The notes under the pieces are model-generated. The model was not told the DNA's origin. It searched no databases and saw nothing but the letters and a program-made list of their open reading frames with translations. The position numbers and the translations under genes are program-made. A stretch of 64,000 bases of DNA from Paenibacillus sp. MMS20-IR301 (lineage in GTDB: Bacteria; Bacillota; Bacilli; Paenibacillales; Paenibacillaceae): the NCBI RefSeq assembly GCF_032302195.1, contig NZ_CP135275.1, positions 5,919,501 to 5,983,500 of the forward strand, in the 5' to 3' direction. Shown here in pieces: positions 4,155 through 39,407 of the stretch. How positions within the stretch are numbered: the stretch's first letter is position 1; each line of letters opens with the position of its first letter.

Positions 4155-4634
4155 ATGTTCATTCAAATTATCGGTGTAGGCAAATTGAAGGAAAAGTACC
4201 TGGTCAGCGGCATCGCAGAATATGCTAAGCGGCTTACGCCATACCTCAAATTTCAGATGATTGAGGTGGCGGATGAGAAAGCACCTGACAACCTCAGCGA
4301 TGCAGAGGTGGATCAGGTGAAGGTGCGCGAGGGCGAGCGTATCCTCGCGCACATCAAGAGCGAGGCGCATGTCATTGCGCTCGCGATCGACGGCAAGCTC
4401 TGGAGCTCCGAGGAGCTTGCCGCCGAGATCGACCGGCTCGGCACCTACGGGACGAGCCATGTCGTCTTCGTCATCGGAGGTAGCCACGGGCTCTCCGATG
4501 AGGTGATGCGCCGCGCGCAGCAGCGGATGAGCTTCGGCCGCATGACGCTGCCCCATCAGCTCATGCGGCTGGTGCTGGTGGAGCAGGTTTATCGGGCGGT
4601 GAAGATTAATCGGGGGGAACCTTATCATAAGTAG
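4155..4634 (+). CDS. rlmH: 23S rRNA (pseudouridine1915-N3)-methyltransferase
   Basis: A SPOUT-class (trefoil-knot) methyltransferase that methylates pseudouridine 1915 of 23S rRNA. It has 159 residues, the normal family length. The SAM-binding knot shows VIGGSHG at 106-112, and the conserved C-terminus runs from HQLMRL (134 onward) to RGEPYHK at the stop. AGGAGG lies at ideal distance from the ATG. The last codons and the six bases after the stop are repeated at the far end of the following AT-rich island, exactly as rlmH (orfX) serves as the integration site of SCC elements in staphylococci. The gene product itself is intact. Confidence 0.97.
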
Positions 4635-4640
4635 GGCGAA
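4617..4640 (+). other. Putative att site at the rlmH 3' end (rlmH-proximal junction)
   Basis: GAACCTTATCATAAGTAGGG (4617-4636) overlaps the last codons and stop of rlmH. It matches 13404-13423 at 18 of 20 positions and 10129-10144 at 14 of 16. CATAAGTAGGGCGAA (4626-4640) occurs as an exact inverted copy at 10107-10121. Staphylococcal SCC elements use the equivalent bases of rlmH as their core site. Confidence 0.8.
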
Positions 4641-4706
4641 ATTAATTAGGAGAGGTCTGTTGAACTCTAATTAGCAGTGTTTTTTCAAATTGTATAATTA
4701 TTTTAT

Positions 4707-4735
4707 GGCATCCGGTGGGGTGCCTTTATTATTTT
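4707..4735 (+). terminator. Terminator downstream of rlmH, inside the island
   Basis: The stem GGCATCC/GGGTGCC (one G-T pair) is followed by a T-rich run. The remaining bases up to 4866 are AT-rich and probably hold the promoter of the next gene. Confidence 0.65.
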
Positions 4736-4866
4736 CAACTCAGTTGCCTCCTCAATTAAATAGGCAGAATTAAGTAAAAGTATGTCGAAACAAGAAAAAA
4801 TTTATATACAATTTTAATATGGATTCTATACAATAGGAATATGGTGGAAAATTAGGAAGATAGGTT

Positions 4867-6084
4867 GTGGGCACCTTGTCGCGAAGCGCTGACTATACAA
4901 TACAAGGGTTTATTTATCAATTTAATAAGACACTACTAGAAATTTTAAATGATGAAGATGATGCAGTTATTTCAATAGAAGGTATCATTGAAGATATAGA
5001 AGTCGCTACTGCCCTTACAACAAGGGCAATACAGTGTAAATATCATGAGGAACAAGAGATTTTTACCCTAGGTAACGTGTACAAACCTATTCTTCAGATG
5101 ATGGAACATTATTTTGATAACGCAGATAAGGACATTGAGTATAAACTCTATGCGCATTTCCCAAACGAAAGAGAGGGTAGCAATTTCGAGATAAATGAGG
5201 AGCAGATAAAGACAATACTCCAATCACGTGATCAGAGGTTTCAAAGAATCATCAATAAGATAAATGGAAATGTTGATATTCCGGGTTTTCTTGAACGCTT
5301 TACTTTGGAATTTGGTGCTTCTCTGCAGGTGATTATTGAACGTATTACGTTGTCTTTGGAGAGAAATGGCCTACCAAGAGATGATATTGATACTTTATTT
5401 TATCCTAATGCCATTCAGATGATTGCAGACCTGAGTATACTTCATGAGGCCCAACAAAGAGTAATTAAGAAAACATCAATGTTAGAAAATTTGCAGCAAA
5501 TTAGGAAAACTGCAATCACAAGATGGACACGATCATTACGAACATTGGATAAAATATTATCCTCCAAAAGAAAACAGTTAAAAACAAATCTTGACAAGAA
5601 CTCAAGGTTGCGATACTTGTTTTTATCCCAACAATCTATTAATAATTTCAATGATGAAATAGTAAATTTTATATGTGACTTTATGAATAAGTATCATTTT
5701 AAAGAGGTACACGATAAAACACCATTAATTTGCATTAATTGTTCATTGGAGGTTTTTAAAGATATTCGAATAAGGTTGCACAAAAAGAATATTAGTTATA
5801 ATGATGGATTAGTGACTGATGAATATTTTGATAAGAATAAATTTCTGACAGGACCTGTACGAGCCAGACTAGGAAAGCAACTTTATTCTGACTTTCAATT
5901 ACGACTTCTACGATTTGATGAGAATGAAATAGGAATACTAAATGAAACAAAATGTGATGATTTTTTTCTGTTTTCAGATATAGTGCCTGACTTTGATTTT
6001 CAAGACGTAAATGTTGAACATATAAATCTAAACGAAATCGATCAAATCAAATTTGTTATGGGAATGGTGGACACGTATGAGTAA
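4867..6084 (+). CDS. DUF4297-like dsDNA nuclease subunit, HerA partner
   Basis: A 405-residue protein starting at GTG, with AGGAAG 7 bp upstream. The N-terminus (residues about 8-75) has the pattern of DUF4297/Cap4-type PD-(D/E)XK nucleases: GFIYQ near residue 15, an acidic strand IEGIIEDIEV near 39-48, then the catalytic strand AIQCKYH near 56-62, giving an E...QxK active site. The C-terminal 200 residues are helical and unrecognised. The gene overlaps the HerA gene by 8 bp, so the two are translationally coupled. DUF4297 proteins are known to assemble with HerA and cut DNA in anti-phage defence. Family membership is judged by motif, not by search. Confidence 0.72.
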   Translation: MGTLSRSADYTIQGFIYQFNKTLLEILNDEDDAVISIEGIIEDIEVATALTTRAIQCKYHEEQEIFTLGNVYKPILQMMEHYFDNADKDIEYKLYAHFPNEREGSNFEINEEQIKTILQSRDQRFQRIINKINGNVDIPGFLERFTLEFGASLQVIIERITLSLERNGLPRDDIDTLFYPNAIQMIADLSILHEAQQRVIKKTSMLENLQQIRKTAITRWTRSLRTLDKILSSKRKQLKTNLDKNSRLRYLFLSQQSINNFNDEIVNFICDFMNKYHFKEVHDKTPLICINCSLEVFKDIRIRLHKKNISYNDGLVTDEYFDKNKFLTGPVRARLGKQLYSDFQLRLLRFDENEIGILNETKCDDFFLFSDIVPDFDFQDVNVEHINLNEIDQIKFVMGMVDTYE

Positions 6085-7855
6085 TTTAATCGGTAAAGTA
6101 TTGTCTAGCTCCCCTAATAGTATTGTTGTTACAATACAAAATTTAAAGGCCCTTGAAGATAACAAGGATAAATTACAAATTGGACAATATCTAAAAATAG
6201 CAGATGGAAACAGCAATTATATTGTGAGCGTGATAAATAATATCAAAGCAATTGATTACAATATTGAGGATGACATTAAACTAATAATTGAAACGCAACC
6301 GATAGGCAGTATAGTTGAGGGAGATTTCCGTAGGGGAACTAAAAATTTACCTGTTCCAACTGAACCGGCATACATATTAGATTCTGGAATGCTTGATCGT
6401 ATTTTTGGGGCAGGTGCAGAATATAATTTTCCTATTGGCGTATTGTCCCAAAATGAGAACATTCAAGTAAAAGTAAATGGTGATAAGTTTTTTGGGAAAC
6501 ATATTGCTATTGTAGGCTCTACTGGTGCAGGCAAATCATGTACAGTTGCAAAAATACTACAAGAAGCCGTAGGTATTAATAATTCGTTAAATATAAATTC
6601 AGAGGACCAAAAAAATTCTCACATTATAATTTTTGACATACACTCTGAATATTCCGCTGCTTTTACACTAACACAAGAGCAGAATTTCACATTAAACAAT
6701 CTATCCGTGGATAAAATGAAATTACCTTATTGGCTTATGAATTCAGAAGAGTTGGAATCATTATTTATAGAGAGTAATGAAAATAATTCCCACAATCAGA
6801 TTTCAATGTTTAAAAATGCCGTTATCTTTAACAAGGAGAAACATAATCCTACAATCAACGACATTACATATGATACGCCTGTCTATTTCGATATTAAGGA
6901 AGTATTTAATTATATCGAAAACATGAATAGAGAAGTGATCAGCAAGCTTGAAACCGAAAATTGCCCTAAATTAGTAGACAATACGTTGGTAAGAGATCGT
7001 AAACAGTTCTACTTTAATAACGTATATGAATTTGTGTCACAGTCTACAGCCGCTGCGACCAAAGCTTCTAATGGTCCATTTCATGGTGAGTTTAATCGGT
7101 TTTTGTCCAGATTAGAAACGAAACTAACTGATAAAAGATTGAATTTTTTGTTGAATCCTACCAAAGAGAATGGTGAACTATATTCGACTAATGATTTTGA
7201 AGAACTCATGAAGCAGTTTTTAGGATATCTAAATAAAGCAAATGTCACAATTGTTGATCTTAGTGGAGTACCCTTCGAGGTTCTTAGTATAACAGTTAGT
7301 TTGGTCGCAAGATTAGTATTTGATTTTAGTTTCCATTATTCAAAAATCCAACATGATAGAGAATTACTTAATGATATCCCTGTAATGATTGTTTGCGAAG
7401 AAGCCCACAACTATATTCCGCGTAACGGTGGCGCAGAATATAATTCATCAAAAAAATCTATTGAGCGAATCGCCAAAGAGGGGAGAAAATACGGGTTAAG
7501 TTTAATGGTTGTAAGTCAAAGGCCTTCTGAAGTATCGGAAACAATACTAGCGCAGTGCAATAATTTTGTTTCACTTCGTTTAACAAACCCTAATGATCAA
7601 AATTTTATAAAAAACCTTATGCCAGATAGTACAAAGAATCTTGGAGAAATACTTCCAAATCTTGGGCAGGGTGAATGTATAGTCGTAGGTGATTCAATAA
7701 TAATGCCTACAGTTATAAAGATGGAAAAACCGGTGCCAGAGCCGAAATCTCAAAGTGTTCCATTCAGTCAAGAATGGGAGCAATCATGGAAACAGATAAC
7801 CTTTTCAGATATTATTAAGCGTTGGAGAAAAGAAGAAGGATTATTAGAACAGTAA
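6077..7855 (+). CDS. HerA-type ATPase (DUF87), defence-associated
   Basis: A 592-residue hexameric-translocase-type ATPase. The N-terminal part (1-130) resembles the HAS-barrel. Walker A GSTGAGKS is at 147-154, the Walker B-like strand VCEEAHNYIP at about 439-448, and the SQRPSEV sensor segment of HerA proteins follows about 40 residues later. The frame is open from 6053, but the ATG at 6077 is chosen because it overlaps the stop of the nuclease gene and has GGTGG upstream. In archaea HerA works with NurA in end resection; bacterial HerA paired with Sir2, DUF4297 or NurA-like proteins gives phage defence. Here the pairing with the preceding gene makes a two-gene defence module the best reading. 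Confidence 0.88.
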   Translation: MSNLIGKVLSSSPNSIVVTIQNLKALEDNKDKLQIGQYLKIADGNSNYIVSVINNIKAIDYNIEDDIKLIIETQPIGSIVEGDFRRGTKNLPVPTEPAYILDSGMLDRIFGAGAEYNFPIGVLSQNENIQVKVNGDKFFGKHIAIVGSTGAGKSCTVAKILQEAVGINNSLNINSEDQKNSHIIIFDIHSEYSAAFTLTQEQNFTLNNLSVDKMKLPYWLMNSEELESLFIESNENNSHNQISMFKNAVIFNKEKHNPTINDITYDTPVYFDIKEVFNYIENMNREVISKLETENCPKLVDNTLVRDRKQFYFNNVYEFVSQSTAAATKASNGPFHGEFNRFLSRLETKLTDKRLNFLLNPTKENGELYSTNDFEELMKQFLGYLNKANVTIVDLSGVPFEVLSITVSLVARLVFDFSFHYSKIQHDRELLNDIPVMIVCEEAHNYIPRNGGAEYNSSKKSIERIAKEGRKYGLSLMVVSQRPSEVSETILAQCNNFVSLRLTNPNDQNFIKNLMPDSTKNLGEILPNLGQGECIVVGDSIIMPTVIKMEKPVPEPKSQSVPFSQEWEQSWKQITFSDIIKRWRKEEGLLEQ

Positions 7856-7864
7856 TTATAAGTT

Positions 7865-7890
7865 AGGGGTGCGAATGCATCCCTTTATTT
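7865..7890 (+). terminator. Terminator of the nuclease-HerA operon
   Basis: The stem GGGGTGC-GAAT-GCATCCC is followed by TTTATTTATT, 10 bp after the HerA stop. Confidence 0.8.
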
Positions 7891-8040
7891 ATTCCAATAA
7901 TACCTAGTGGCTCATGATATTCTTAAATAGCTTTCTTTTTTTGAGATAATCTACTCTGAATACGACAAATACGCTCAGTCGGTGTTTCCGACTTAGATGT
8001 TTGAAGATGGCTGTCCGAGTGAGTTTTAATAAAATATTAT

Positions 8041-8061
8041 CTAACAACTTTAATCTGTTAG
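8041..8061. promoter_or_regulatory. Inverted repeat upstream of the DUF4365 gene
   Basis: CTAACA-N9-TGTTAG lies about 40 bp before the start codon, in the likely promoter region. Around it (7891-8097) there is no gene. The minus strand of 7928-8030 reads as an open stretch without a start and looks like decayed coding DNA. Confidence 0.35.
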
Positions 8062-8097
8062 TACCTCATTAAATATTAGGAATAGGAGAACGTAATT

Positions 8098-9936
8098 ATG
8101 CGTGATAATCTCCCAACGCGATTGGCAACATTTGATCAGGAAGAAGACAGTGTACTGAAATTTAAGCTCCTTGTCCCTAAGAGTAAATATCTGGTTCGCA
8201 CGGAATCGGGAGGTGATTATGGGGTTGACTTAATTCTCGAACTTAAAAAAAACCAATCTATGACTAATTTCCGAATACATATGCAGTTGAAAAGTAATTC
8301 AACGGGAAAGGTAAGCAACGGTGGTACTTTTGGGTTTTCAGTACCCGTCACTACGTTAAATTATCTGATGAACCAGCCGCGGTCTATCTTTGTTGTATAT
8401 GTAGAGAAGAGTAATTGCTTTCTATGGGAATGGGTTGCCGAAATCAATAAAGCCTGTGTAGATAAAGGTATAGAGTTATCAAGCACAAGCCAAAGAGAAG
8501 TGAAGCATGAGTTCCAGAGAGAACTTACTTATAAATCTTTTGACGAGATTTTTGATATGGTTATAACGCATGGGGATTTTACACGTGAGATATCCCTCCG
8601 CTTAATGAATGGTTTTGAAGTGGTTCCGGGCATTGGAGGACAAGTCGTTGATGCAATCGACTCTTTTAGAGAAGAATACGATCAGGCTCAGGAACTAGAG
8701 AAGGATTTTGAATTTGCGAAAGCTCTAGAAAAATATGACGCTCTATCTAAATTTCTCAGAACCGAGGGCATTTACGTAAAATGTGCTATTTTATCTGAAA
8801 ATGTAAATGATTATAAGAGAGCGATTAGTTATTGCGATAAAATATTAAATAACAATACTCGCCATTTCGAAGCAACCGTAATAAAAGGAACAAGTTTAGG
8901 ACAGTTAAGAAAATATAGGGAATCCATTACGGTTTTAGAGAAAGCCCTTTCGCTTGAAGAGAATTTCATTGTTCTTAATAATTTGGGATATTCATGGTGG
9001 ATGAACAACGATCCAGAGAAAGCGACTAAATACTATTTAAGAATCCTACAAATTGAACAGAGTGAAACAGTACAGACTCATATAAACTTGGCTCTCTGTT
9101 ATGATCAGATGTTTAATTTTTCTGAAGCCTTTCGACATATTAATATAGCTCTCAAAAATGATCCTTCAAGTTCTAAAGCCTTAGCGATTGTCGGCAAGTT
9201 TCATCGTTTTTTTGGCAGGCACGATATCGCAGAAAAGTATTTTAGGAGATCACTTGACATTAATCCACATAATTATGTAGCAATTTCGGGATTAGCTTTG
9301 ATTCTTGTTGAGAGAAGAGAAGATTTTGAAGCGGCACATTACTTTGGGATGTGGATGAAAGATTATGGACATACACTCTTCAAGGATAAACGAAAGAAAA
9401 AGCAAAATGTTATCATTGTAGATATGACGTGGAGAAGCTTTAAACCTATTCTGTTAAAGCAGCTTTCGAAAAGGAGATTTATGGTTAGTTTCGAAGATGG
9501 GGAGGAGCACCACCTTGAGGTTCAAAAAAAGGATTGGGTTGGAATCGGTGCCATATTAGAAAAGGATGAAGACGTGGAAACTCCTATAGTACCGTATTTA
9601 TTTAAAGTATACGAGCAAGAACAAGATGCCGTCCAGACCATTAAGCAAATATTGCAACAGGTTTCGTTAGCCCGATATGTTTTTATACCAGACACATATG
9701 TAGATGCAAATTCCAGTATACAAGTAATTATAAAGGAACTAGAAAAATCTGTTTTTTTCACGATCGTATTTAACGATTTCAGAATTACGGGTTCTACGAA
9801 TGCCTCAGACAAAGCCGGGTTTAAGCAATTTGTTAAATCATTTTCAACTTCAAAAGAGATTCAAATCCATATACGGGATGAAAATGAACGAAAAAATTTA
9901 ATTATCTGGGGCGTAAAAAATGTAACTATTTCTTAG
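8098..9936 (+). CDS. DUF4365 nuclease-like domain fused to TPR repeats
   Basis: A 612-residue protein. Residues 1-165 match the DUF4365 pattern, a restriction-endonuclease-like fold: GGDYGVDL at 38-45, then RIHMQLK at 59-65, giving D44...E48...Q63-x-K65 as a plausible active site. Residues about 190-440 are tandem TPR helices (for example at 240-275 and 345-410). The last 170 residues are not recognised. AGGAGA precedes the ATG. Stand-alone DUF4365 proteins are common in defence islands, and this gene lies between the HerA module and the AIPR gene. A nuclease effector with a TPR sensing or assembly part is inferred; no target can be named. Confidence 0.7.
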   Translation: MRDNLPTRLATFDQEEDSVLKFKLLVPKSKYLVRTESGGDYGVDLILELKKNQSMTNFRIHMQLKSNSTGKVSNGGTFGFSVPVTTLNYLMNQPRSIFVVYVEKSNCFLWEWVAEINKACVDKGIELSSTSQREVKHEFQRELTYKSFDEIFDMVITHGDFTREISLRLMNGFEVVPGIGGQVVDAIDSFREEYDQAQELEKDFEFAKALEKYDALSKFLRTEGIYVKCAILSENVNDYKRAISYCDKILNNNTRHFEATVIKGTSLGQLRKYRESITVLEKALSLEENFIVLNNLGYSWWMNNDPEKATKYYLRILQIEQSETVQTHINLALCYDQMFNFSEAFRHINIALKNDPSSSKALAIVGKFHRFFGRHDIAEKYFRRSLDINPHNYVAISGLALILVERREDFEAAHYFGMWMKDYGHTLFKDKRKKKQNVIIVDMTWRSFKPILLKQLSKRRFMVSFEDGEEHHLEVQKKDWVGIGAILEKDEDVETPIVPYLFKVYEQEQDAVQTIKQILQQVSLARYVFIPDTYVDANSSIQVIIKELEKSVFFTIVFNDFRITGSTNASDKAGFKQFVKSFSTSKEIQIHIRDENERKNLIIWGVKNVTIS

Positions 9937-10106
9937 GCAATTTGTCTCAAATCGTCGTTTCATAGATTAGAATTTTAGAAGATGAACTTTAGAATATGAA
10001 GGAACGCGACAGAACCCTTGCCGCGTATTTAAAAGGGGAGCGGTGAGCTTCGCAAAGCGATAAGCATCATTATATACTATTTTGAGTTCAGGCACCGACA
10101 TCGGCG

Positions 10107-10150
10107 TTCGCCCTACTTATGTTACGGTGAACCGTATCACAAGTGACGGC
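10107..10150. other. Internal att-like site with two opposed arms
   Basis: The left arm TTCGCCCTACTTATG (10107-10121) is the exact reverse complement of 4626-4640 at the rlmH junction. The right arm GAACCGTATCACAAGT (10129-10144) is a direct near copy of 4617-4632. Together the arms form an imperfect palindrome of about 45 bp centred on ACGGTGAACCGT. This fits a junction left by a second insertion. The rest of 9937-10291 holds only the hairpin at 10187-10221 and the 10-bp palindrome GGTGATCACC at 10250. Confidence 0.65.
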
Positions 10151-10186
10151 GAAAAGTCGGGGTGTTGGATATGGCAGGGGAGTGTG

Positions 10187-10221
10187 ACATAAGAATTTGC
10201 AGAGCCTCTGAGTTCTTATGT
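10187..10221. repeat. Stem-loop with 9-bp perfect stem
   Basis: ACATAAGAA pairs with TTCTTATGT around an inner AGAG/CTCT stem. There is no T-run, so it is not a simple terminator. It lies 40 bp from the internal att-like site and may belong to it. Confidence 0.5.
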
Positions 10222-10291
10222 TTCAGGAGTTCGTAGTTCTTTTTGATTAGGTGATCACCCATTATTTTCTAAAAATATGATATTATGAAGA

Positions 10292-10387
10292 ATGGGCAAT
10301 TGGTTTCGGATACAAGGCCATTACGAAGATATTGAAGATATTAATGAAGTTCGTCAATACAAGAACGTTATGCTGAATTACTGTTAA
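10292..10387 (+). pseudogene. Short ORF fragment sharing a motif with 11104-11232
   Basis: A 31-residue frame, MGNWFRIQGHYEDIEDINEV and so on, ends 20 bp before the next gene. Its EVRQ segment, and the DNA around it, recurs in the broken frame at 11104. Both look like pieces of one lost gene type. It could instead be a leader peptide of the gene at 10408. Confidence 0.3.
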
Positions 10388-10407
10388 TAGTAAAGGAGAC
10401 ATGAAGA

Positions 10408-10737
10408 ATGAAAGAAGACAATCGTGGAATTGCAATCTACCATGTAGTTAAAAGAAAAGAAGGGTTTGAGAAATCGGCGGAAATTTTGTTTACTTTAGTT
10501 AAGAATGCTCAAGAAAAATACCCAAACAAGAACAGAATGATTTACTTAGATATCGAGGGACATAAGAATAAAGATGGCGGCTTTGATCATGATTTGTTTG
10601 AATTGCAAAAAGAATTTATCCTTGGATTTTTAATGCAGTTTATATCAGAAGTAAGTATGCCATTGGGAAGATTTAAAAATGAAAATCAAAAAAATGATGT
10701 CCCAGATGGATTAAATATAATGCCTGCAAAGGATTAA
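10408..10737 (+). CDS. Unknown 109-residue island protein
   Basis: Not recognised. The ATG has AAAGGAGA 9 bp upstream and codon use matches the AT-rich island. The predicted protein is soluble and mixed alpha/beta: a basic N-terminal helix region, a strand MIYLDIEGH near 45-53, then a long amphipathic helix FELQKEFILGFLMQFI near 66-81 and a polar tail. It has no signal peptide or metal motif. It sits alone between the internal att-like site and the degraded stretch before the AIPR gene. A small antitoxin- or immunity-like role is possible, but nothing in the sequence proves it. Confidence 0.6.
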   Translation: MKEDNRGIAIYHVVKRKEGFEKSAEILFTLVKNAQEKYPNKNRMIYLDIEGHKNKDGGFDHDLFELQKEFILGFLMQFISEVSMPLGRFKNENQKNDVPDGLNIMPAKD

Positions 10738-11411
10738 TTGAAACAAGAATAACTACAGTGCATTCGAAAAGGGCATTAACTACGCGTAACACCCAATGCA
10801 CTATCGGCCATAGAGCCCTCGGTCGGTAGCAGTTATTTAAGGATTCAACAAGGCATTTCTGAAGCAGTAAAGCATTAACAACCGAACACAGTCGCCCACC
10901 TACCCGTATCAGTTGATGCGGGTGTCACTGTTGGTGGAGCAGTTTTCAAACGACTAGATTATTGGGGGATAACTCTAAAAGTGACGGCAAAAAAACTTGG
11001 TAGAAAAGTTCGTCTCGCCATATATTCGCCCTGTTATTGATCTTTGTGATGAAGGATAATTAACATAAAAATATGGCTAATAGGCTAGAACAGGCTATAT
11101 CGTGAAGTTCGTCAGTGTCAGAAACATTACTAAGAAATCTCCGCAGATGAGTACGAACAAATAAGGTTAACGCAATTTCTCACGGAAAAAACTGCTGAAA
11201 AAATGGAAGAACATAAACGAGATGAAAGTTAATTATAATCCATAGATAGAATTCAAAGCATATGCTTCAAAGTCAGACACCACTTAATACGCTTTCACGC
11301 ATTGGGCAATTTTTGCCTCGGTCCGACATAAATGCTTTACCTGTCGCGTAATGTTTAAGGCATCAAAATGCACAAAGTAAATAAATAACTAAATTTCAAG
11401 TTTTAATAATG
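10738..11411. other. Degraded non-coding stretch with coding remnants
   Basis: There is no intact gene in about 670 bp. Short frames interrupted by stops are visible, the clearest at 11104-11232 (plus strand). On the minus strand, from about 11370 down to 11281, a 29-codon frame reads HFDALNITRQVKHLCRTE. A GTGACGGC motif at 10981 resembles the one next to the internal att-like site. This is probably the scar of earlier insertions. Confidence 0.5.
11104..11232 (+). pseudogene. Broken coding remnant
   Basis: The frame reads EVRQCQKHY, a stop, then EISADEYEQIRLTQFL and ends EEHKRDES at TAA. The EVRQ start matches the fragment at 10292. No start codon or intact frame remains. Confidence 0.4.
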
Positions 11412-11420
11412 TGTTATAAT
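11412..11420 (+). promoter_or_regulatory. Extended -10 promoter of the AIPR gene
   Basis: TGTTATAAT is a perfect extended -10 (TG-N-TATAAT) 40 bp before the start codon. No good -35 is seen at 17 bp, as is usual for this class. Confidence 0.6.
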
Positions 11421-11459
11421 CCAAATATTACATGAGATGTGTTATGGGGGAGAAACAAT

Positions 11460-13211
11460 ATGGTCTTTATGGATAACTTTTTAGGTAGACAAGATTTAAT
11501 TAGTAAATATAAAGACAATGCTCTTTTATTATATTCTTTAGAGCTTCGTTTACAGTTAGAGGATATTCAAAGTGTTGCATCTGATGCTTTGACTGATGGA
11601 AATGATGATAAAAAGTGTGATCTTGTATATATAGATGAAGAAGAGGGTCTGGCAATAATTGCACAGGGTTATCATTCACAAAAAGATAGAAACTCCGCTC
11701 CAGCTAATAAAGCTTGCGATTTAAATACTGCAGTGACATGGTTGTTTAATGAAGACATTGAGAATCTGCCGTTAGATATAAGAGCCGCATCAATACAACT
11801 AAGACAAGCTATTAATGATGGGAAAATACATACCATTCAAATTTGGTATGTTCATAACTTACCAGAATCAAAAAATGTGTCTGATGAAATGAACGCAGTA
11901 AAGCTTTCGCTAATGAGCGCCCTAAAGTCATATACTGATAATCCAAAAGATATAAATGTAATTTCATTAGAAGTAGGTAAAGAGACTCTAAATAGATGGT
12001 ATAAATCTTCATCTGTTCCCATATTGGTAAATGATCCTTTTGAAATTAGCACCCCCAATGGAGGTTACCAAATAGTGGGAGATAACTGGACTAGTTATAT
12101 GACGGCTATTCCTCTAACTTTCTTATTTGATAATTATAAAAAATATAAAGATGACCTTTTCTCGTCTAACATTAGAGGATATTTAGGAAGTCTAAACAAA
12201 AAGAATAATATTAATAACGGTATTAAAAGGTCAGTAGAGAGCACACCTTCAAATTTTATGATTTATAACAATGGTCTTACAATTCTTGTTAATAATTTTG
12301 AAGAGGTTTCTATAAAAAATATTTCAGTGACAGGAATGTCAATTGTAAACGGGGCACAAACAACTGGAGCTATAGGATCTGTCCTTAACAGGCCGAGAGA
12401 GGATGCACTGGTTTCTGTAAGATTTATTAAATGCGATGATCCTAAAATACTCAGAGATATAATTGAATTTAATAATAAACAAAATGTGGTAGCCTCATCT
12501 GATTTTAGAAGTACTGATGAGATTCAGGACAATCTTAGAAGACAGTTTAATGAGATACGCAGTGTTGTATATCTCGGTGGGAGAAGAGGTGGAAGTGAGG
12601 ATAAGATTAAAAGATACTCGAATTTGATTCCTCATGATTTAGTAGCCCAATGTCTTTCTGCATTTCATCAAGATCCTAACACAGCATATAATAGAAAAAA
12701 GGAAATATGGGAAAATAATACTTTGTACTCGAGTATATTTTCAGAAAAAACTACAGCAAGGCACATGTTTTTCGTGTATTCACTATACCAAGCAATTGAG
12801 AAAAAGAAAGAGAATCTTAAACTGAATAAAACTAATCTGAGTACTACAGAGCAAGATATTTACGAATATTTGTCCGTTAGAGGTTCGACCTGGGTCCTAC
12901 TTGCTGCTATAGCAAGTAGTATGGATAATATATTAAATAAGCCACTGAGAGATCTCTTCGATTTAAAGTTCAAGCAGGAGATAACCTTTGAGGAGGCTGT
13001 ATTAATATGGGAACATCCTTTGGAAACAGCGCTTCCATTTGTAAGTTCATTGTTACCAGCTGTTAAAAACGGTGTAAAAACCAAAGATGTTATTAATAAT
13101 TCAGTAAAAGATTTTAAAGAAAAGACTGCTTCAATACTAAAACTTCTTTGGGCAACTCCAGGTTTGAAAATTAATTTTGAAGAATTTAGTAGTCGGACTG
13201 AGACTAACTAG
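11460..13211 (+). CDS. AIPR-family abortive-infection protein
   Basis: A 583-residue protein of the AIPR type (abortive infection phage resistance). The signature region is clear: NNGLTILVN near residue 270, VNGAQTTGAI near 296-305, and a conserved EFNNKQNVV segment near 340. The frame opens at GTG 11439, but the ATG at 11460 has GGGGGAG 7 bp upstream and is preferred. The N-terminal 200 residues, including a CDLVYIDEEEG strand near 55, may form a nuclease-like module, as proposed for some relatives. AIPR proteins occur in defence islands and with restriction genes; the mechanism is not established. It is monocistronic and closed by a long hairpin. Confidence 0.85.
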   Translation: MVFMDNFLGRQDLISKYKDNALLLYSLELRLQLEDIQSVASDALTDGNDDKKCDLVYIDEEEGLAIIAQGYHSQKDRNSAPANKACDLNTAVTWLFNEDIENLPLDIRAASIQLRQAINDGKIHTIQIWYVHNLPESKNVSDEMNAVKLSLMSALKSYTDNPKDINVISLEVGKETLNRWYKSSSVPILVNDPFEISTPNGGYQIVGDNWTSYMTAIPLTFLFDNYKKYKDDLFSSNIRGYLGSLNKKNNINNGIKRSVESTPSNFMIYNNGLTILVNNFEEVSIKNISVTGMSIVNGAQTTGAIGSVLNRPREDALVSVRFIKCDDPKILRDIIEFNNKQNVVASSDFRSTDEIQDNLRRQFNEIRSVVYLGGRRGGSEDKIKRYSNLIPHDLVAQCLSAFHQDPNTAYNRKKEIWENNTLYSSIFSEKTTARHMFFVYSLYQAIEKKKENLKLNKTNLSTTEQDIYEYLSVRGSTWVLLAAIASSMDNILNKPLRDLFDLKFKQEITFEEAVLIWEHPLETALPFVSSLLPAVKNGVKTKDVINNSVKDFKEKTASILKLLWATPGLKINFEEFSSRTETN

Positions 13212-13288
13212 AAATATAAAAAATTAATTCTGAGTCGTGTTCATTTCATAAAAGAAGTGTCTAGTTTTTTATAAGATGTGTGAATATT

Positions 13289-13352
13289 ATCCCCTTGGGT
13301 AGACAGTGGTAAATGCGTATATCCGCATCACTGTTTGTTCAAGGGGATTTAT
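13289..13352 (+). terminator. Long two-part terminator hairpin
   Basis: The outer stem ATCCCCTTG/CAAGGGGAT and inner stems ACAGTG/CACTGT and ATGCG/CGCAT stack into one long hairpin, followed by TTTATTT. Confidence 0.8.
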
Positions 13353-13403
13353 TTAAATCTATAAAGCGCGATTGTAGTTTTCTCGCGGTTAGAATAATAC
13401 GGT

Positions 13404-13423
13404 GAACCGTATCACAAGTAGGG
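13404..13423 (+). other. Distal att-like repeat of the rlmH island
   Basis: GAACCGTATCACAAGTAGGG repeats the rlmH 3' end (4617-4636) with two mismatches and shares GAACCGTATCACAAGT exactly with 10129-10144. It marks the right boundary of the island. Confidence 0.75.
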
Positions 13424-13590
13424 GCAAGTTTAAACTAAAGATTAGTAATGAATTTACGTGTGTTTTCTCTAAATAAGGTAATAAGCACGGTTTGTGAAGT
13501 AGTCAGACTTTTAGTAGAAATTAAATCCTTATTATTAACTTACTCAAAAATATCTTTTAACTGATCTACATTTATATCTACAATTTCTAG

Positions 13591-13719
13591 ATGCTTCAGG
13601 AAAAGAAAGATTTGATATTGGTTAAGTTGCTGACTCAATATGGTGCGGATGTGAGCGGGGGTTACAAACAGCTGTTACGTATTGTAGAGAAATGTGGTTC
13701 GGTTGTTGCTGTAGCGTGA
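13591..13719 (+). CDS. Possible 42-residue ORF or remnant
   Basis: The frame MLQEKKDLILVKLLTQYGAD and so on ends at TGA 13717-13719. It lacks a good ribosome site, and the minus strand is also open over much of it. It is probably a fragment. Apart from it, 13424-13829 holds nothing recognisable and is AT-rich. Confidence 0.25.
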   Translation: MLQEKKDLILVKLLTQYGADVSGGYKQLLRIVEKCGSVVAVA

Positions 13720-13829
13720 AAATTATTCACTATTAGAGATTTATAGATTGTTGTGATTGCTATCTATGAGGCGTCTTAATTTATATTGGGGGAACTATGG
13801 GGAATTCACAAAATATGCCCCGAAATAAC

Positions 13830-13875
13830 AATAAGAGCGGAACATAAGCTAACAGCTTCATGCCCTGCTCTTATT
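13830..13875 (-). terminator. Terminator of the XRE gene
   Basis: AATAAGAGC/GCTCTTATT encloses an inner AGCT/AGCT stem directly after the minus-strand stop. Confidence 0.6.
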
Positions 13876-16856: not shown

Positions 16857-16942
16857 GCCGTAGCTTAAGTGCAGTTCTTATTTTATGATCAATGGTGCTG
16901 AGTTTGACTAGCGTGTAGCTTATGGATCATAAGGAGGAAGAA

Positions 16943-19186
16943 ATGACGGAATTATTAGCTCCAGCAGGAAATATGGAAGCTTTAAAAGCTGCAATATCTA
17001 ATGGGTGTGACGCAATATACTTAGGAATGCAAAAATTTGGTGCGCGCGCATACTCCTCTAATTTTGATGTAGAATCGTTAAAAGAGGCTGTTACGTATGC
17101 GCACCTGAGGGACGTTAAAATCTATGTTGCAATGAATACCATCGTTTTCGAAAACGAAGTTGAAGAGATGAAGGAACAGATACAAGAATTAAATGAAATC
17201 GGGGTGGATGGCGTTATTGTCCAGGACCTGACGGCTTTCGATTATATCGTTAACAACTTTCTTGATCTGGAAGCACATTGTTCCACTCAAATGGGAATAG
17301 ACGATGTAGACGGAACTTTATTATTTAAAGAGCTTGGTGCAAAAAGAGTTGTTCTGTCCCGTGAGGTGGAGATTGAGAAGGTAAAAGAGATCAAAAGAGT
17401 GGCTGACATCCCTTTGGAGATTTTCGTTCACGGTGCGTTATGTGTATCTTATTCGGGAAACTGTCTAATGTCAGGATTACTCGGCAACCGATGCGCAAAC
17501 CGCGGAAGATGTGTGGGTTCATGCCGTAAAGAGTATGAACTAATGGATGTGGCAACAGATACATCTTTAGGGAAAAGCTATATTTTGTCTACTAAGGACT
17601 TAAACACAATCGATTATATCCAGGATCTGAAAGAAATCGATTCTTTGAAAATAGAAGGCCGAATGAAAGCACCTACGTATGTTGCTAATGTTGTATCCAA
17701 ATATCGCAAAGCCTTAGACAATAAAATAACCGAAGAAGATAAGGAAAACCTGAAAAAAACATTCAACAGGACATTTACTAAAGGATATTTGTTCCGCGAA
17801 GACAGGAGGAATATTACAAACATCGTAAAACCTAATAACTTTGGTTATGAAATTGGAACCATCAGCAAGATTATTAAAGATACGTATGAAATAACACTTT
17901 CACGCCCTTTAAATCAGAACGATACCATCCGAATAAGTCACAACAATGAAGATGTTAATTTAACGGTTGCCAAACTGTACGACAAAGATGGCGAATTAAT
18001 CAACAAAGCAGAAGATGTCTGCTATATCAAAATCACAGAAAAGATGTCTACGGGAGATTTGGTATATAAAACGAAGGATTATTACTATTACAAAGAATTA
18101 GAAGCCTCACTGGAAAAAGAATTTAAGCGGTTTAATCTAGATATAAGAGTATATGCATATCCAGATTCAAAGCTCTTCATAGAGGCGGAGGGCTTAGGCT
18201 TTGGTTATACCTATGAAAGCGAGGAAATACTGGGCGAAGCCATTAATAATCCAACAACCAAAGACCAGGTAATCAAGCAATTCTCAAGATTGAATGATAC
18301 GATATTCGAACTTCATCAGGTCGATTATGAGGAATGCAATGCGTTTATTCCAGCTAAATTGTTAAATGCAGCCAGAAGAGATATTGTACTGGGCTTATAT
18401 GACTTAAAGCTTAACAGCCAGCAGAAAAGAACCAAGGCGGTGAAAGCAAAAGAAAAAATAAGCTTTACCCCTGAACAGCCATACCTTACGGCCTCTGTAA
18501 CGAATCAGGAACAGTATGATGCCTGCGTGAGCTGTGGAATTAAGGAAATCTATTTTGACAATGTGGTTAGAAGAAATCAGAATGATTATAAGGAAAAAGA
18601 AGGGCAGCTGCTAATTGGAGGATATGGCGGGATTCATCACTACAAAGAAACAAACCCGTTTGTTACGGACTATTCTCTAAACGTTATTAATGCTACGAGC
18701 TGCTATGAATTATATAAATTAGGTGCAAAACGAGTTACTTTATCTCATGAATTGAATAAGAGCCAAATTGAAGATTTAATGAATGCCTATGTTGAAGAAA
18801 ATGACGGCTATCCTGCACTGGAAATGATTGTTTATGGCAGGGCCCCTTTGATGTTTACGAAATATTGCCCCATGAAAAAAATGAATCAATGCAGAGTCTG
18901 CGAAACGAAGAGCTATGAGTTAAAGGATGAGCACGGAACATTCCCTATCCTTTCCCATGAGGATTGTACAACGACTATTCTTAATGGGAAGACGCTTAAT
19001 CTTCTAGATGAGCTACAGAACATCAAAGGAATTGAGGCATTCCGATTAAACTTCACAGTTGAATCCAAAGAGCAGGTTGTGAACGTAATTAGTATGGCCT
19101 CCGGCAAATTAAATGGCTCAATGAGTCATGCTGTCTTTAATCAGGAGACTGATACAAGAGGACATTTTAATAAAGAGATTGTGTAG
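16943..19186 (+). CDS. U32 family peptidase / RlhA-like RNA hydroxylation protein
   Basis: A 747-residue protein starting at ATG 16943, directly behind AAGGAGGAAGAA; the upstream ATG at 16922 is inside the ribosome site. The N-terminal U32 domain begins ELLAPAGNMEALKAAI. The conserved cysteine region reads HGALCVSYSGNCLMSG, then NRCANRGRCVGSC, about residues 165-200. A second collagenase-like region (about 385-500) and a further U32-like C-terminal half with a CPMKKMNQCRVC cluster near 640 complete the long form. E. coli RlhA and TrhP, of this family, hydroxylate 23S rRNA and tRNA; others are called collagenase-like. The gene is more AT-rich than the backbone, suggesting acquisition. Confidence 0.85.
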   Translation: MTELLAPAGNMEALKAAISNGCDAIYLGMQKFGARAYSSNFDVESLKEAVTYAHLRDVKIYVAMNTIVFENEVEEMKEQIQELNEIGVDGVIVQDLTAFDYIVNNFLDLEAHCSTQMGIDDVDGTLLFKELGAKRVVLSREVEIEKVKEIKRVADIPLEIFVHGALCVSYSGNCLMSGLLGNRCANRGRCVGSCRKEYELMDVATDTSLGKSYILSTKDLNTIDYIQDLKEIDSLKIEGRMKAPTYVANVVSKYRKALDNKITEEDKENLKKTFNRTFTKGYLFREDRRNITNIVKPNNFGYEIGTISKIIKDTYEITLSRPLNQNDTIRISHNNEDVNLTVAKLYDKDGELINKAEDVCYIKITEKMSTGDLVYKTKDYYYYKELEASLEKEFKRFNLDIRVYAYPDSKLFIEAEGLGFGYTYESEEILGEAINNPTTKDQVIKQFSRLNDTIFELHQVDYEECNAFIPAKLLNAARRDIVLGLYDLKLNSQQKRTKAVKAKEKISFTPEQPYLTASVTNQEQYDACVSCGIKEIYFDNVVRRNQNDYKEKEGQLLIGGYGGIHHYKETNPFVTDYSLNVINATSCYELYKLGAKRVTLSHELNKSQIEDLMNAYVEENDGYPALEMIVYGRAPLMFTKYCPMKKMNQCRVCETKSYELKDEHGTFPILSHEDCTTTILNGKTLNLLDELQNIKGIEAFRLNFTVESKEQVVNVISMASGKLNGSMSHAVFNQETDTRGHFNKEIV

Positions 19187-37367: not shown

Positions 37368-39407
37368 ATGCAGGGGGAGCGGGGAACGACCAACTATTTT
37401 ACACAAGAGATGCTGGATATGGCCGTGCGGCTGTGGTCCCGGTCCTCTATTTCATTAATGGATGTCCGCCGCCAGGTGATCCGCATGGATCAGCCGCTGC
37501 TGAATTACAGGCTGCCGGCCAGTACACTTATGTACACCAGCGGGGAAAGGGCAGCTATCCAGCTGAATGAGCATTTGTTTAACACCGGGAAGTTCGGGAT
37601 TGTTCATGGCGGAAAAGGTACGGAGCTGTCCATTCATCCAAGCGGCACTAACTTAGAAATGTACATGGTGCTGTATAAGTCCGAGACGGCTCCATTCTAT
37701 AAAAGAGAGATCCGGCGCTTGCTGGAGCATATCAACCCATTTACACAAGTGTACGGGTTCGCTCCGGAGAATCCTGTTTTTTTCAAGGAGAAGTGCCGGA
37801 GTATGTTTGATTACTGGAGCAGTCCTTCCGAGCAGAATCTGTTTCATGCCAAGATCATGCTTTATCAGCTGGTTCATGAAATATACCGGGAGCTCGGACG
37901 CGGGAATATCCGTTACTTCGAGACCGATTATGTGGAGCTGGTTAAGCAATACCTGGACCGCCATTATACGGAGCCGGTATCCCTTCAGCTGCTGGCCGAT
38001 GGCCTGCCGATCAGCCGGAGCCTGCTTGGCAAGCTGTTCAGGAAACGGGAGCATAAGAGCCTCCAGGTCTATTTGAATGAGAAGAGGCTGGAATCGGCCA
38101 GGCACTATTTGCAGAACCCGGGTTTAACGTTGCAGGAGGTTGCGCTGGGCTGCGGCTTTACGGATGAACTCAATTTAAACCGGATGTTCAAGAAATACAT
38201 GTATATGACACCGGGCGATTACCGGAGAAAAATGATAGTTAAGCATACCAAAAACGATATTGATAACGATTCTCAACGTCTTTACAATGGGGTAGGACTA
38301 GACGAACTAGCCAAAACCACAGGAGACGGGGAGTTAGTAATGTTTGGACAGGCCAGAAGCAAGGAAATTCTATTACCGGCTGCTTTATGTCTTATGCTGC
38401 TTTTAACCGCCTGCGCGTCCACCGCGCCTGCAAATAATGCTTCAAGTACGGCTAAGCCGCAGGTGCAGGCCCAGGCATCGCCAAGCGCAGAAGCAAAGGA
38501 GACCGTAGCCGTGGCACAAACACGAGTTGTAACAACAGAGCATGGGGAAGTCGAGGTTCCGGCGGACCCGCAGAGGATTGTATATCTGGTAGGGAATAAT
38601 GTGGGCGACATCCTGCCGTTCGGCAAAACGGTTGTAGGCGTCGATCAATATGGTGATCCGTCGGTGCGTCCGGAAGCGTGGAAGCAGGAATGGGGCGCAC
38701 TGGTGTCAGCAGTATCAATTGTAGCGGGAAATGACCCCGAGAGCATACTGGCGCTGGAGCCGGATCTGATTATCGGTTCTGCTACCTGGTCCTCCCTGCC
38801 GATGGATCAGTTAAGCAAAATCGCTCCGACGATTTTCTATAACGAAATGTCCCCGCTTGATGAACGGATGACGTTCTTTGGCGAGATGTTCGGCATGCAG
38901 GACAAAGCACAGGAATTGATTACGCAGTATGCTGCAAAGGTCGAAGCTGCCAAGCAGCGCCTTATAGATGGGGGCATTTATGATAAGAAAATTGTGTTTC
39001 TGCAAGGGGTAGAGGATGGCACTCCAGGCTTGCAGGGAGATAAAACCAGAGGCATAATCTATGAGGACCTGGGTATGCATGCTCCGGAGATCATTGAGCA
39101 GGAATTTTTCAACCGTGAGAATAAGAATTCGGAAGGTTATTATTCACCCTTTTCCATGGAGGTTATGGGCAAGTATCTGAGCGAAGCTGATATTATCAGC
39201 TATACGAACTTCGGCTCTTCAGTGGAGAATCTGGAGTCGCAGTTAGCCTCAGTCGCCATTTGGAAGACGATCCCCGCAGTGCAGAAGGGCAATATTCAAT
39301 ATCATACTGCCACTGATACGCTAATTGATTATGACTATGCCAGCCGGATGGTGTCGCTCGACACATTTGTGGATGCTTTGCTTGAGCTTCCTATTGCGCA
39401 GAAGTGA
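37368..39407 (+). CDS. AraC-family regulator fused in frame to a siderophore-binding lipoprotein
   Basis: One frame of 679 residues. Residues 1-170 are a cupin-type sensor and about 195-290 the AraC double HTH (VSLQLLADGLPISRSLLGKL; LTLQEVALGCGFTDELNLNR). After residue 300 comes a complete lipoprotein start: ATG at 38340 (residue 325) with GGGGAG upstream, hydrophobic LLPAALCLMLLLTAC with lipobox Cys349, then a FecB/FhuD-type iron-siderophore-binding domain (about 395-675: DPQRIVYLVGNNVGDILPFG, LALEPDLIIG). A second Fur box lies in the frame at 38261-38275. So the binding protein may be made separately from an internal promoter and start, while read-through gives a fusion reminiscent of Btr. 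No permease gene is adjacent. Confidence 0.85.
   Translation: MQGERGTTNYFTQEMLDMAVRLWSRSSISLMDVRRQVIRMDQPLLNYRLPASTLMYTSGERAAIQLNEHLFNTGKFGIVHGGKGTELSIHPSGTNLEMYMVLYKSETAPFYKREIRRLLEHINPFTQVYGFAPENPVFFKEKCRSMFDYWSSPSEQNLFHAKIMLYQLVHEIYRELGRGNIRYFETDYVELVKQYLDRHYTEPVSLQLLADGLPISRSLLGKLFRKREHKSLQVYLNEKRLESARHYLQNPGLTLQEVALGCGFTDELNLNRMFKKYMYMTPGDYRRKMIVKHTKNDIDNDSQRLYNGVGLDELAKTTGDGELVMFGQARSKEILLPAALCLMLLLTACASTAPANNASSTAKPQVQAQASPSAEAKETVAVAQTRVVTTEHGEVEVPADPQRIVYLVGNNVGDILPFGKTVVGVDQYGDPSVRPEAWKQEWGALVSAVSIVAGNDPESILALEPDLIIGSATWSSLPMDQLSKIAPTIFYNEMSPLDERMTFFGEMFGMQDKAQELITQYAAKVEAAKQRLIDGGIYDKKIVFLQGVEDGTPGLQGDKTRGIIYEDLGMHAPEIIEQEFFNRENKNSEGYYSPFSMEVMGKYLSEADIISYTNFGSSVENLESQLASVAIWKTIPAVQKGNIQYHTATDTLIDYDYASRMVSLDTFVDALLELPIAQK
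38261..38275. promoter_or_regulatory. Internal Fur-box-like site inside the fusion ORF
   Basis: TGATAAC-G-ATTCTCA matches the 7-1-7 Fur pattern at 12 of 14 positions and lies 65 bp before the internal lipoprotein start at 38340. Confidence 0.65.

What the first reader, a model, noticed from the sequence alone, without database searches (positions are those of the whole stretch)
4617..13423. SCC-like island at the 3' end of rlmH outside staphylococci
Seen: the last 18 bases of rlmH plus two more (4617-4636) recur at 13404-13423 with 18 of 20 matches; everything between is AT-rich and full of defence-type genes, while both flanks differ. Known: staphylococcal cassette chromosomes insert at exactly this point of rlmH and leave such direct repeats. 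Inference: this is an SCC-type element, or a member of a wider rlmH-targeting class, in a Paenibacillus-like genome, with anti-phage cargo instead of resistance genes.
Basis: partly seen in the sequence, partly recalled or inferred. Interest (0 to 1): 0.9.

Follow-up and report, generated by a model that had tools for sequence, protein, structure and literature searches.

The report
Recombinase-less cassette array at Paenibacillus rlmH
A bacterium of the Paenibacillus kind carries, at the end of the gene rlmH, a short row of inserted DNA cassettes built like the staphylococcal cassettes that spread methicillin resistance, but without their insertion enzyme and here loaded with phage-defence genes; many of its relatives carry similar rows.

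Summary
The repeat is real (18/20; best of 300 randomised islands 16/20), but this is not one island. A third direct copy at 10123-10144 is fused to an inverted half, so 4617-13423 is at least two tandem cassettes (about 4617-10129 and 10129-13404), the second probably holding a decayed rlmH 3' end. In the genus, 75 of 95 genomes examined carry further rlmH-end copies within 20 kb (192 same-strand, 4 opposite, 1 in a shuffle). Relatives show exact empty sites (G059/G100; G072/G093) and a 6.9-kb cassette without recombinase genes, 99.97% identical in two species whose rlmH regions are 89% alike. CcrB-like recombinases lie within 50 kb downstream of rlmH in 14 of 100 genomes. The window's genome matches neither serine-recombinase family tested, so the array fails SCC's ccr criterion; it works like a ccr-less pseudo-SCC, presumably moved in trans. 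Cargo: a DUF4297-HerA pair, an AIPR/AbiU-like gene, a DUF4365-TPR gene. SCC-like rlmH islands in Enterococcus and P. pinistramenti are in print; the census of small, mostly recombinase-free arrays seems new. The exact empty site of this array was not found.

The parts
4155..4634 (+). rlmH (RlmH, SPOUT methyltransferase), target gene
   Evidence: PF02590 E 2.5e-57; one match in the genome
4617..4636 (+). att site at the rlmH end (left junction of cassette 1)
   Evidence: rlmH is followed by GGGCGAA as in 32 of 98 genus rlmH ends; left half lacks the inverted repeat (6 of 26)
4707..4724 (+). terminator-like hairpin in the left end of cassette 1 (no excess of such sites over shuffles)
4867..6084 (+). 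DUF4297 nuclease of a DUF4297-HerA defence pair
   Evidence: NCBIfam DUF4297_antiphage 9.8e-44, 149.9 bits, below its cut-off of 300; solved DUF4297 8ziq 4.6e-75
6077..7855 (+). HerA ATPase of the pair
   Evidence: PADLOC HerA 4.2e-178; NCBIfam HerA_antiphage_2 643.4 bits, below its cut-off of 850; solved partner 9c1m_M 5.1e-241
8098..9936 (+). DUF4365 + TPR protein, defence candidate (weak)
   Evidence: PF14280 2.1e-11, TPR; PADLOC PDC-M02A 5e-6
10107..10144 (.). palindromic att site between cassette 1 and cassette 2
   Evidence: 14 of 26 half-site positions complementary
10408..10737 (+). 109-aa ORF, no family
10900..10990 (+). probable decayed rlmH 3' end (10900-10973) followed by a decayed att (fossil junction)
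   Evidence: alignment; (score 45, best null 42); the decayed att part is read by eye
11460..13211 (+). AIPR-domain protein, AbiU-like
   Evidence: PF10592 1.2e-33; PADLOC AbiU 2.4e-38; start could be GTG 11439
13378..13431 (+). right-hand att; 13404-13431 is identical to rlmH-end arms of three relatives
   Evidence: 11 of 26

Best explanation
4617-13423 is a tandem array of at least two small, non-autonomous, SCC-like cassettes inserted at the 3' end of rlmH of a Paenibacillus chromosome. An incoming cassette is placed between rlmH and its neighbour (inner junctions may be used too); its left end rebuilds the last rlmH codons (..EPYHK stop) and its right end supplies an inverted half-site, so inner junctions are imperfect palindromes centred on GA (..ACGGT-GA-ACCGTATCAYAAGT..). 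In relatives the exchange point falls within GAACC. Inferred, not shown: the exchange is done by a Ccr-type large serine recombinase supplied in trans by autonomous rlmH elements that circulate in the genus and are absent from this genome. Cassette 1 brings a DUF4297-HerA abortive-infection pair plus a DUF4365-TPR gene; cassette 2 an AIPR/AbiU-like gene and a probable fossil of an older rlmH end.
For: Three direct copies plus an inverted one. A matrix built on 17 sites of early genomes finds 192 same-strand, 4 opposite-strand and 1 shuffled site in 1.83 Mb downstream of rlmH; 61 of 79 genomes outside the training set have one or more; 0 sites in 400 kb of other chromosomal DNA. Internal sites match the palindrome at 12.6 of 26 positions, rlmH ends 6.8, displaced control 6.6. 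Empty site: G059 rlmH runs straight into DNA that in G100 lies beyond a 16.0-kb element with two Ccr-like recombinases, RadC and a Prim-Pol protein. G072 rlmH runs straight into a cassette that in G093 lies behind 3.65 kb of two other units, and a CTT/CGT variant stays with the cassette, placing exchange within GAACC. Cassette X: 6,855 bp, 99.97% identical in G105 and G015 though rlmH regions are 88.7% alike, bounded by att on both sides, no recombinase among its six ORFs. CcrB-like hits of 170 bits or more: 24 of 31 lie within 50 kb downstream of rlmH (14 genomes), 2 elsewhere on its contig, 5 on other contigs; weaker hits 3 of 40 near. Of 75 genomes with further att sites only 7 have such a hit.
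Against: No recombinase in the array, and no PF00239 or PF07508 match in the genome: the actor is inferred. G072 and G093 also lack any PF00239 match although their arrays differ, so the act was earlier or by something else; deletion between short repeats could explain part. The array's own exact empty site was not found; 13432-13830 matches none of 97 fetched relatives. 19 of 58 exact att 23-mers on rlmH-bearing contigs lie elsewhere, so rlmH is not the only place such sites occur. 20 of 95 genomes show no further site in 20 kb; 10 of these have a CcrB-like hit, perhaps because their elements are longer, which was checked only in part. The Ccr count rests on one query at E 1e-30.
Confidence: 0.8

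Rival explanations
1. The cassettes are fixed, decayed remains: one old ccr-bearing composite element that lost its recombinase by deletion, with later gains and losses coming only from recombination between the short att repeats or from homologous exchange of flanks.
For: No serine recombinase now; G072 and G093 have none either, and loss between short direct repeats could give the G072 state; probable fossil rlmH end in cassette 2.
Against: Loss cannot bring in cassette X: 99.97% identity stops at att on both sides while the rlmH side is 88.7% alike and the other side differs. G087/G109 share a cassette at 98% with rlmH ends at 89%.
Confidence: 0.15
2. A tyrosine recombinase of phage or IME type, not Ccr, makes these insertions.
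For: G014 carries a PF00589 integrase beside rlmH and a 26-aa RlmH tail duplicate about 40 kb away; the window holds a probable fossil rlmH tail; the window's genome has seven PF00589 matches.
Against: In G014 and G108 the rlmH tail itself is altered, unlike the short palindromic sites; no PF00589 match lies within 250 kb of rlmH in the window's genome; Ccr-like genes cluster at rlmH. It may explain the fossil at 10900-10990 alone.
Confidence: 0.05
3. Chance repeats in AT-rich DNA; ordinary variable region beside rlmH.
For: The right flank is AT-rich as well.
Against: 18 of 20 against a best of 16 in 300 randomisations; genus-wide strand-biased sites; exact empty sites.
Confidence: 0.01

Closest known systems
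Staphylococcal cassette chromosome (SCC) and ccr-less composite SCC, e.g. SCCmecC2865 (PMC8407400, passages read)
   Same: Same point of rlmH, direct repeats with a TATCAYAA core, inverted repeats at inner boundaries, tandem composites with internal att, a case without ccr
   Different: Other genus; no resistance genes seen; no match to the serine-recombinase families in the genome; units in the genus census are small (median 3.4 kb); a genus Ccr relative scores 394 bits where NCBIfam's CcrB cut-off is 900
Enterococcus cassette chromosome ECC (PMC6222049, passages and one section read)
   Same: rlmH target, TATCATAA, inverted repeat in attR, several attR sites in some
   Different: ECC carries ccrAB; the window array does not
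SCC-like rlmH islands with Pol-SSB, including Paenibacillus pinistramenti (PMC10061031, passages and part 1 of the Results read)
   Same: Paenibacillus, rlmH, tandem composites with several rlmH-end repeats, genetic-conflict cargo, large serine recombinases
   Different: That paper starts from primase-bearing elements with recombinases; the window array has neither
DUF4297-HerA defence complex (PMC11291478, passages read)
   Same: Adjacent nuclease and ATPase, near full-length alignments to solved complexes
   Different: Sits in an rlmH cassette; both proteins score under NCBIfam's cut-offs; activity untested
Integrons (recalled)
   Same: Arrays of mostly few-gene units at one site, diverse cargo, enzyme not in the units
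   Different: No tyrosine integrase at the site; palindromic att of SCC type; ORF orientation only 421:233

Membership tests
SCC | insertion at the 3' end of rlmH | tested here: met
SCC | direct repeats at both ends | tested here: met
   18 of 20
SCC | inverted repeats at the ends | tested here: met
   14 and 11 of 26 at the inner and right sites, 6 at rlmH, control mean 6.6
SCC | ccr gene complex | tested here: not met
   no PF07508 and no PF00239 match in the genome; no CcrB-like hit at 1e-30
SCC | excision / circular form | not testable with these tools
   needs PCR or reads
ccr-less pseudo-SCC (SCC-like cassette) | att-bounded unit at rlmH without ccr, found as a discrete movable block | tested here: inconclusive
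   bounds met for the window; movement shown for other cassettes, not for these two (searches find no close copy in 100 genomes)
SCC CcrB (recombinase of relative G013) | NCBIfam SCCmet_CcrB cut-off 900 bits | tested here: not met
   393.8 bits, E 1.2e-117: related, not an equivalog
DUF4297-HerA | both genes adjacent and near full length | tested here: met
DUF4297-HerA | NCBIfam equivalog cut-offs | tested here: not met
   DUF4297 149.9 of 300 bits; HerA 643.4 of 850 bits
Integron | tyrosine integrase beside the array | tested here: not met
   nearest PF00589 match about 257 kb away

The most novel reading that the evidence does not exclude
The rlmH end in Paenibacillus is an integron-like cassette platform of serine-recombinase type: a large pool of small, mostly recombinase-free cassettes of general adaptive cargo is shuffled between species by Ccr enzymes acting in trans, and staphylococcal SCC is one specialised branch of this older system of Bacilli.
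Probability: 0.35. Interest if true: 0.78.

Novelty: new variant of a known kind. Interest (0 to 1): 0.58.

Why it matters
Where SCC came from is an open question (recalled). Here is a genus in which about four in five genomes examined carry further rlmH-end sites (75 of 95), few of those have a Ccr relative (7 of 75), and a cassette without a recombinase has moved between species. Cassette capture, trans-mobilisation and array growth could be tested in it. It also corrects a simple reading: a defence island at rlmH need not be an SCC, and defence is one cargo among many.

Tried and rejected
One single island: rejected (third direct and inverted copies). Defence as the class's general cargo: not settled. 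PADLOC at 1e-10 on 100 of 518 mid-size cassette ORFs lists 180 families, of which 25 are shown: generic ABC-type models (mad3 in 7 ORFs, mad8 in 3, AriA in 2), then models that each match one ORF (Drt4, Drt6, RT_UG30, type I specificity, type II, orphan and DISARM methyltransferases). 100 of 249 control ORFs list 10 families, mad3 in 6. So defence looks enriched, but many models hit the same few proteins and no union count was possible. The commonest Pfam hits are ABC transporters, AraC/TetR regulators and oxidoreductases. Close DNA copies of the two window cassettes in 100 genomes: none (best a 66% stretch of cassette 1 in G096, not at rlmH). Reading GGGGCAAG after rlmH as 'unoccupied': seen at 13 of 98 ends, but 9 of these 13 genomes have further sites, so it is no clean label. 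Rfam families in 4-15 kb: none at gathering scores. Promoter and terminator scans: no excess over shuffles. A solved relative of the AIPR protein: none at E 0.01. Rows dropped before counts: G046 and G101 (not fetched), G049, G067, G090 (under 5 kb downstream), G019 and G023 (other genera); units under 800 bp. G014 and G108 were kept as misses although their rlmH tails are prophage-altered.
Full report
OBSERVATION. The rlmH-end repeat is confirmed: 4617-4636 against 13404-13423, 18 of 20; the best of 300 randomised islands is 16 of 20. A 22-base copy at 10123-10144 is identical to 13398-13419, and 10107-10128 is an inverted copy of 4619-4640 (91%), so 10107-10144 is an imperfect palindrome. 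At 10900-10973 lies a probable decayed rlmH 3' end (local score 45; best of 300 shuffles 42, best of 44 other window segments 42), followed, by eye, by a decayed att. The stretch therefore holds at least two units: cassette 1 (about 4617-10129) and cassette 2 (about 10129-13404), the latter probably with a fossil junction inside.

CARGO. Cassette 1: a DUF4297 protein (4867-6084) and HerA (6077-7855), both aligning over nearly their full length with solved DUF4297-HerA chains (8ziq, 9c1m), though under NCBIfam's cut-offs. A system of this kind defends by abortive infection through a dsDNA nuclease (PMC11291478, passages). Then a DUF4365-TPR protein (8098-9936). Cassette 2: a 109-aa orphan and an AIPR/AbiU-like protein (PF10592 1.2e-33, PADLOC AbiU 2.4e-38). 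No recombinase is among them, and the 7.69-Mb single-contig genome has no match to PF07508 or PF00239 and no CcrB-like hit at 1e-30. Seven PF00589 (tyrosine integrase) matches exist, none within 250 kb of rlmH.

GENUS CENSUS. RlmH was found in 100 of 100 genus genomes. I had DNA downstream of rlmH for 98 of them (the window included) and scanned the 95 with at least 5 kb. A 23-position matrix built from 17 sites of the first genomes gives, at 18 bits or more, 192 sites in the rlmH direction, 4 in the other and 1 in a shuffle, over 1.83 Mb; 75 of 95 genomes, and 61 of 79 outside the training set, have at least one. Twenty 20-kb segments from elsewhere in 20 genomes have none. Internal sites carry the inverted half (12.6 of 26 positions, against 6.8 at rlmH ends and 6.6 in a displaced control), as described for ECC, whose attR contains inverted repeats (PMC6222049, section read). 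Successive sites bound 185 units of 800 bp or more, median 3.4 kb, median GC 0.42 against 0.51 in control segments; 51 of 185 have a single ORF of 120 aa or more, 39 have two.

MOVEMENT. (a) G059 against G100: in G059 the rlmH end runs straight into DNA that in G100 begins at a second att 15,993 bp downstream (94.5% over 1,509 bp). The G100 insert carries two large serine recombinases, RadC and a Prim-Pol protein. (b) G072 against G093 (last 270 bp of rlmH 98.1% alike): the cassette beside rlmH in G072 is third in G093, behind 3.65 kb of two other units; the base that distinguishes CTT from CGT stays with the cassette, so exchange lies to its left, within GAACC; a 304-bp gene-less unit is present in G072 and absent in G093. 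(c) Cassette X: 6,855 bp at 99.97% in G105 and G015 while rlmH regions are 88.7% alike; first in the array in G105, second in G015; genes: response regulator, histidine kinase, FtsX-like permease, two ABC ATPases, ABC-2 membrane protein; no recombinase among the six ORFs. Of the 185 units, 17 have a relative over at least 75% of both lengths in another genome, in 9 pairs, so the pool is very diverse.

WHO MOVES THEM. The CcrB-like protein of G013 gave 71 hits in 39 of 100 genomes at E 1e-30. Of 31 hits with 170 bits or more (18 genomes), 24 lie within 50 kb downstream of rlmH (14 genomes), 2 elsewhere on the contig and 5 on other contigs; of 40 weaker hits 3 are near, two of these being pieces of genes already counted. 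A scan of named genomes returned 43 relatives; 20 have a complete rlmH within 10 kb, in Paenibacillus, Cohnella, Saccharibacillus, Amphibacillus, Ureibacillus, Metabacillus, Pseudalkalibacillus, Ornithinibacillus and Neobacillus. So Ccr relatives beside rlmH occur in several genera, while 68 of the 75 genomes with further att sites have no hit of 170 bits (one query only). Conversely, 10 genomes with such a hit show no second site in 20 kb; for two of them, G069 and G084, exact att 23-mers lie 25-50 kb downstream. That the arrays are served in trans is inference. Against it: G072 and G093 differ in their arrays but have no PF00239 match at all; a helper must have been transient, or short-repeat deletion did part of the work.

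LIMITS FOR THE WINDOW ARRAY ITSELF. Its exact empty site was not found. G033, G066 and G096 have the 28 bases 13404-13431 directly at rlmH (28 of 28), but 13432-13830 has no match in the fetched DNA of 97 other genomes, and homology with G033 resumes only at about 13824. No near copy of either cassette was found. 13404 as the right end of the array is therefore likely, not proven. Exact att 23-mers also lie away from rlmH (19 of 58 on rlmH-bearing contigs), so secondary sites exist.

KNOWN OR NEW. In print: ECC in Enterococcus faecium (PMC6222049), a ccr-less composite SCC in S. sciuri (PMC8407400), and rlmH islands, some with several rlmH-end repeats as in Paenibacillus pinistramenti, in Bacillota (PMC10061031, which also notes genetic-conflict cargo). 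P. pinistramenti appears as a natural positive control. An SCC-related island outside rlmH in a staphylococcus is also reported (PMC10581047, seen in search listing only). My searches listed no paper describing genus-wide arrays of small recombinase-free rlmH cassettes; the library lacks most subscription journals and holds no bioRxiv preprints, so this is not proof of absence. I call it a new variant of a known kind.

GENUS LABEL. The window's own species was not identified.

Noticed in passing
G014 (L046-L049) and G108, rlmH region: The rlmH tail is altered and a 26-aa RlmH C-terminal duplicate lies about 40 kb downstream; G014 has a tyrosine integrase beside rlmH, so a second recombinase class uses the same gene end. 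The integrase of G108 was not examined.
   Followed up: partly
L163 (G070) 7584 and 10012; 19 exact 23-mers in other genomes: att-like palindromes also occur far from rlmH, some in pairs bounding small units (oxidoreductase-like plus MarR-like ORFs, by eye, in L163): possible secondary arrays.
   Followed up: partly
G072, 2951-3255 bases after rlmH: A 304-bp gene-less unit bounded by att on both sides, absent from G093.
   Followed up: no
window 4693-4805 and 10129-10268: Noncoding left ends of both cassettes resemble left ends of other cassettes in G007 (74%) and G093 (72%), beyond the att itself: possible conserved recognition or insulating sequence.
   Followed up: partly
window 16922-19186: A 754-aa ORF (peptidase U32-like by my reading of the sequence, not tested) sits at variable distance downstream of rlmH in 11 relatives, in some right after an att.
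   Followed up: no
window 46670-48001 and 48103-48597: Two ORFs laid out like halves of one AraC plus substrate-binding-protein gene, compare the single ORF 37368-39407; probably a broken gene. Described only.
   Followed up: no
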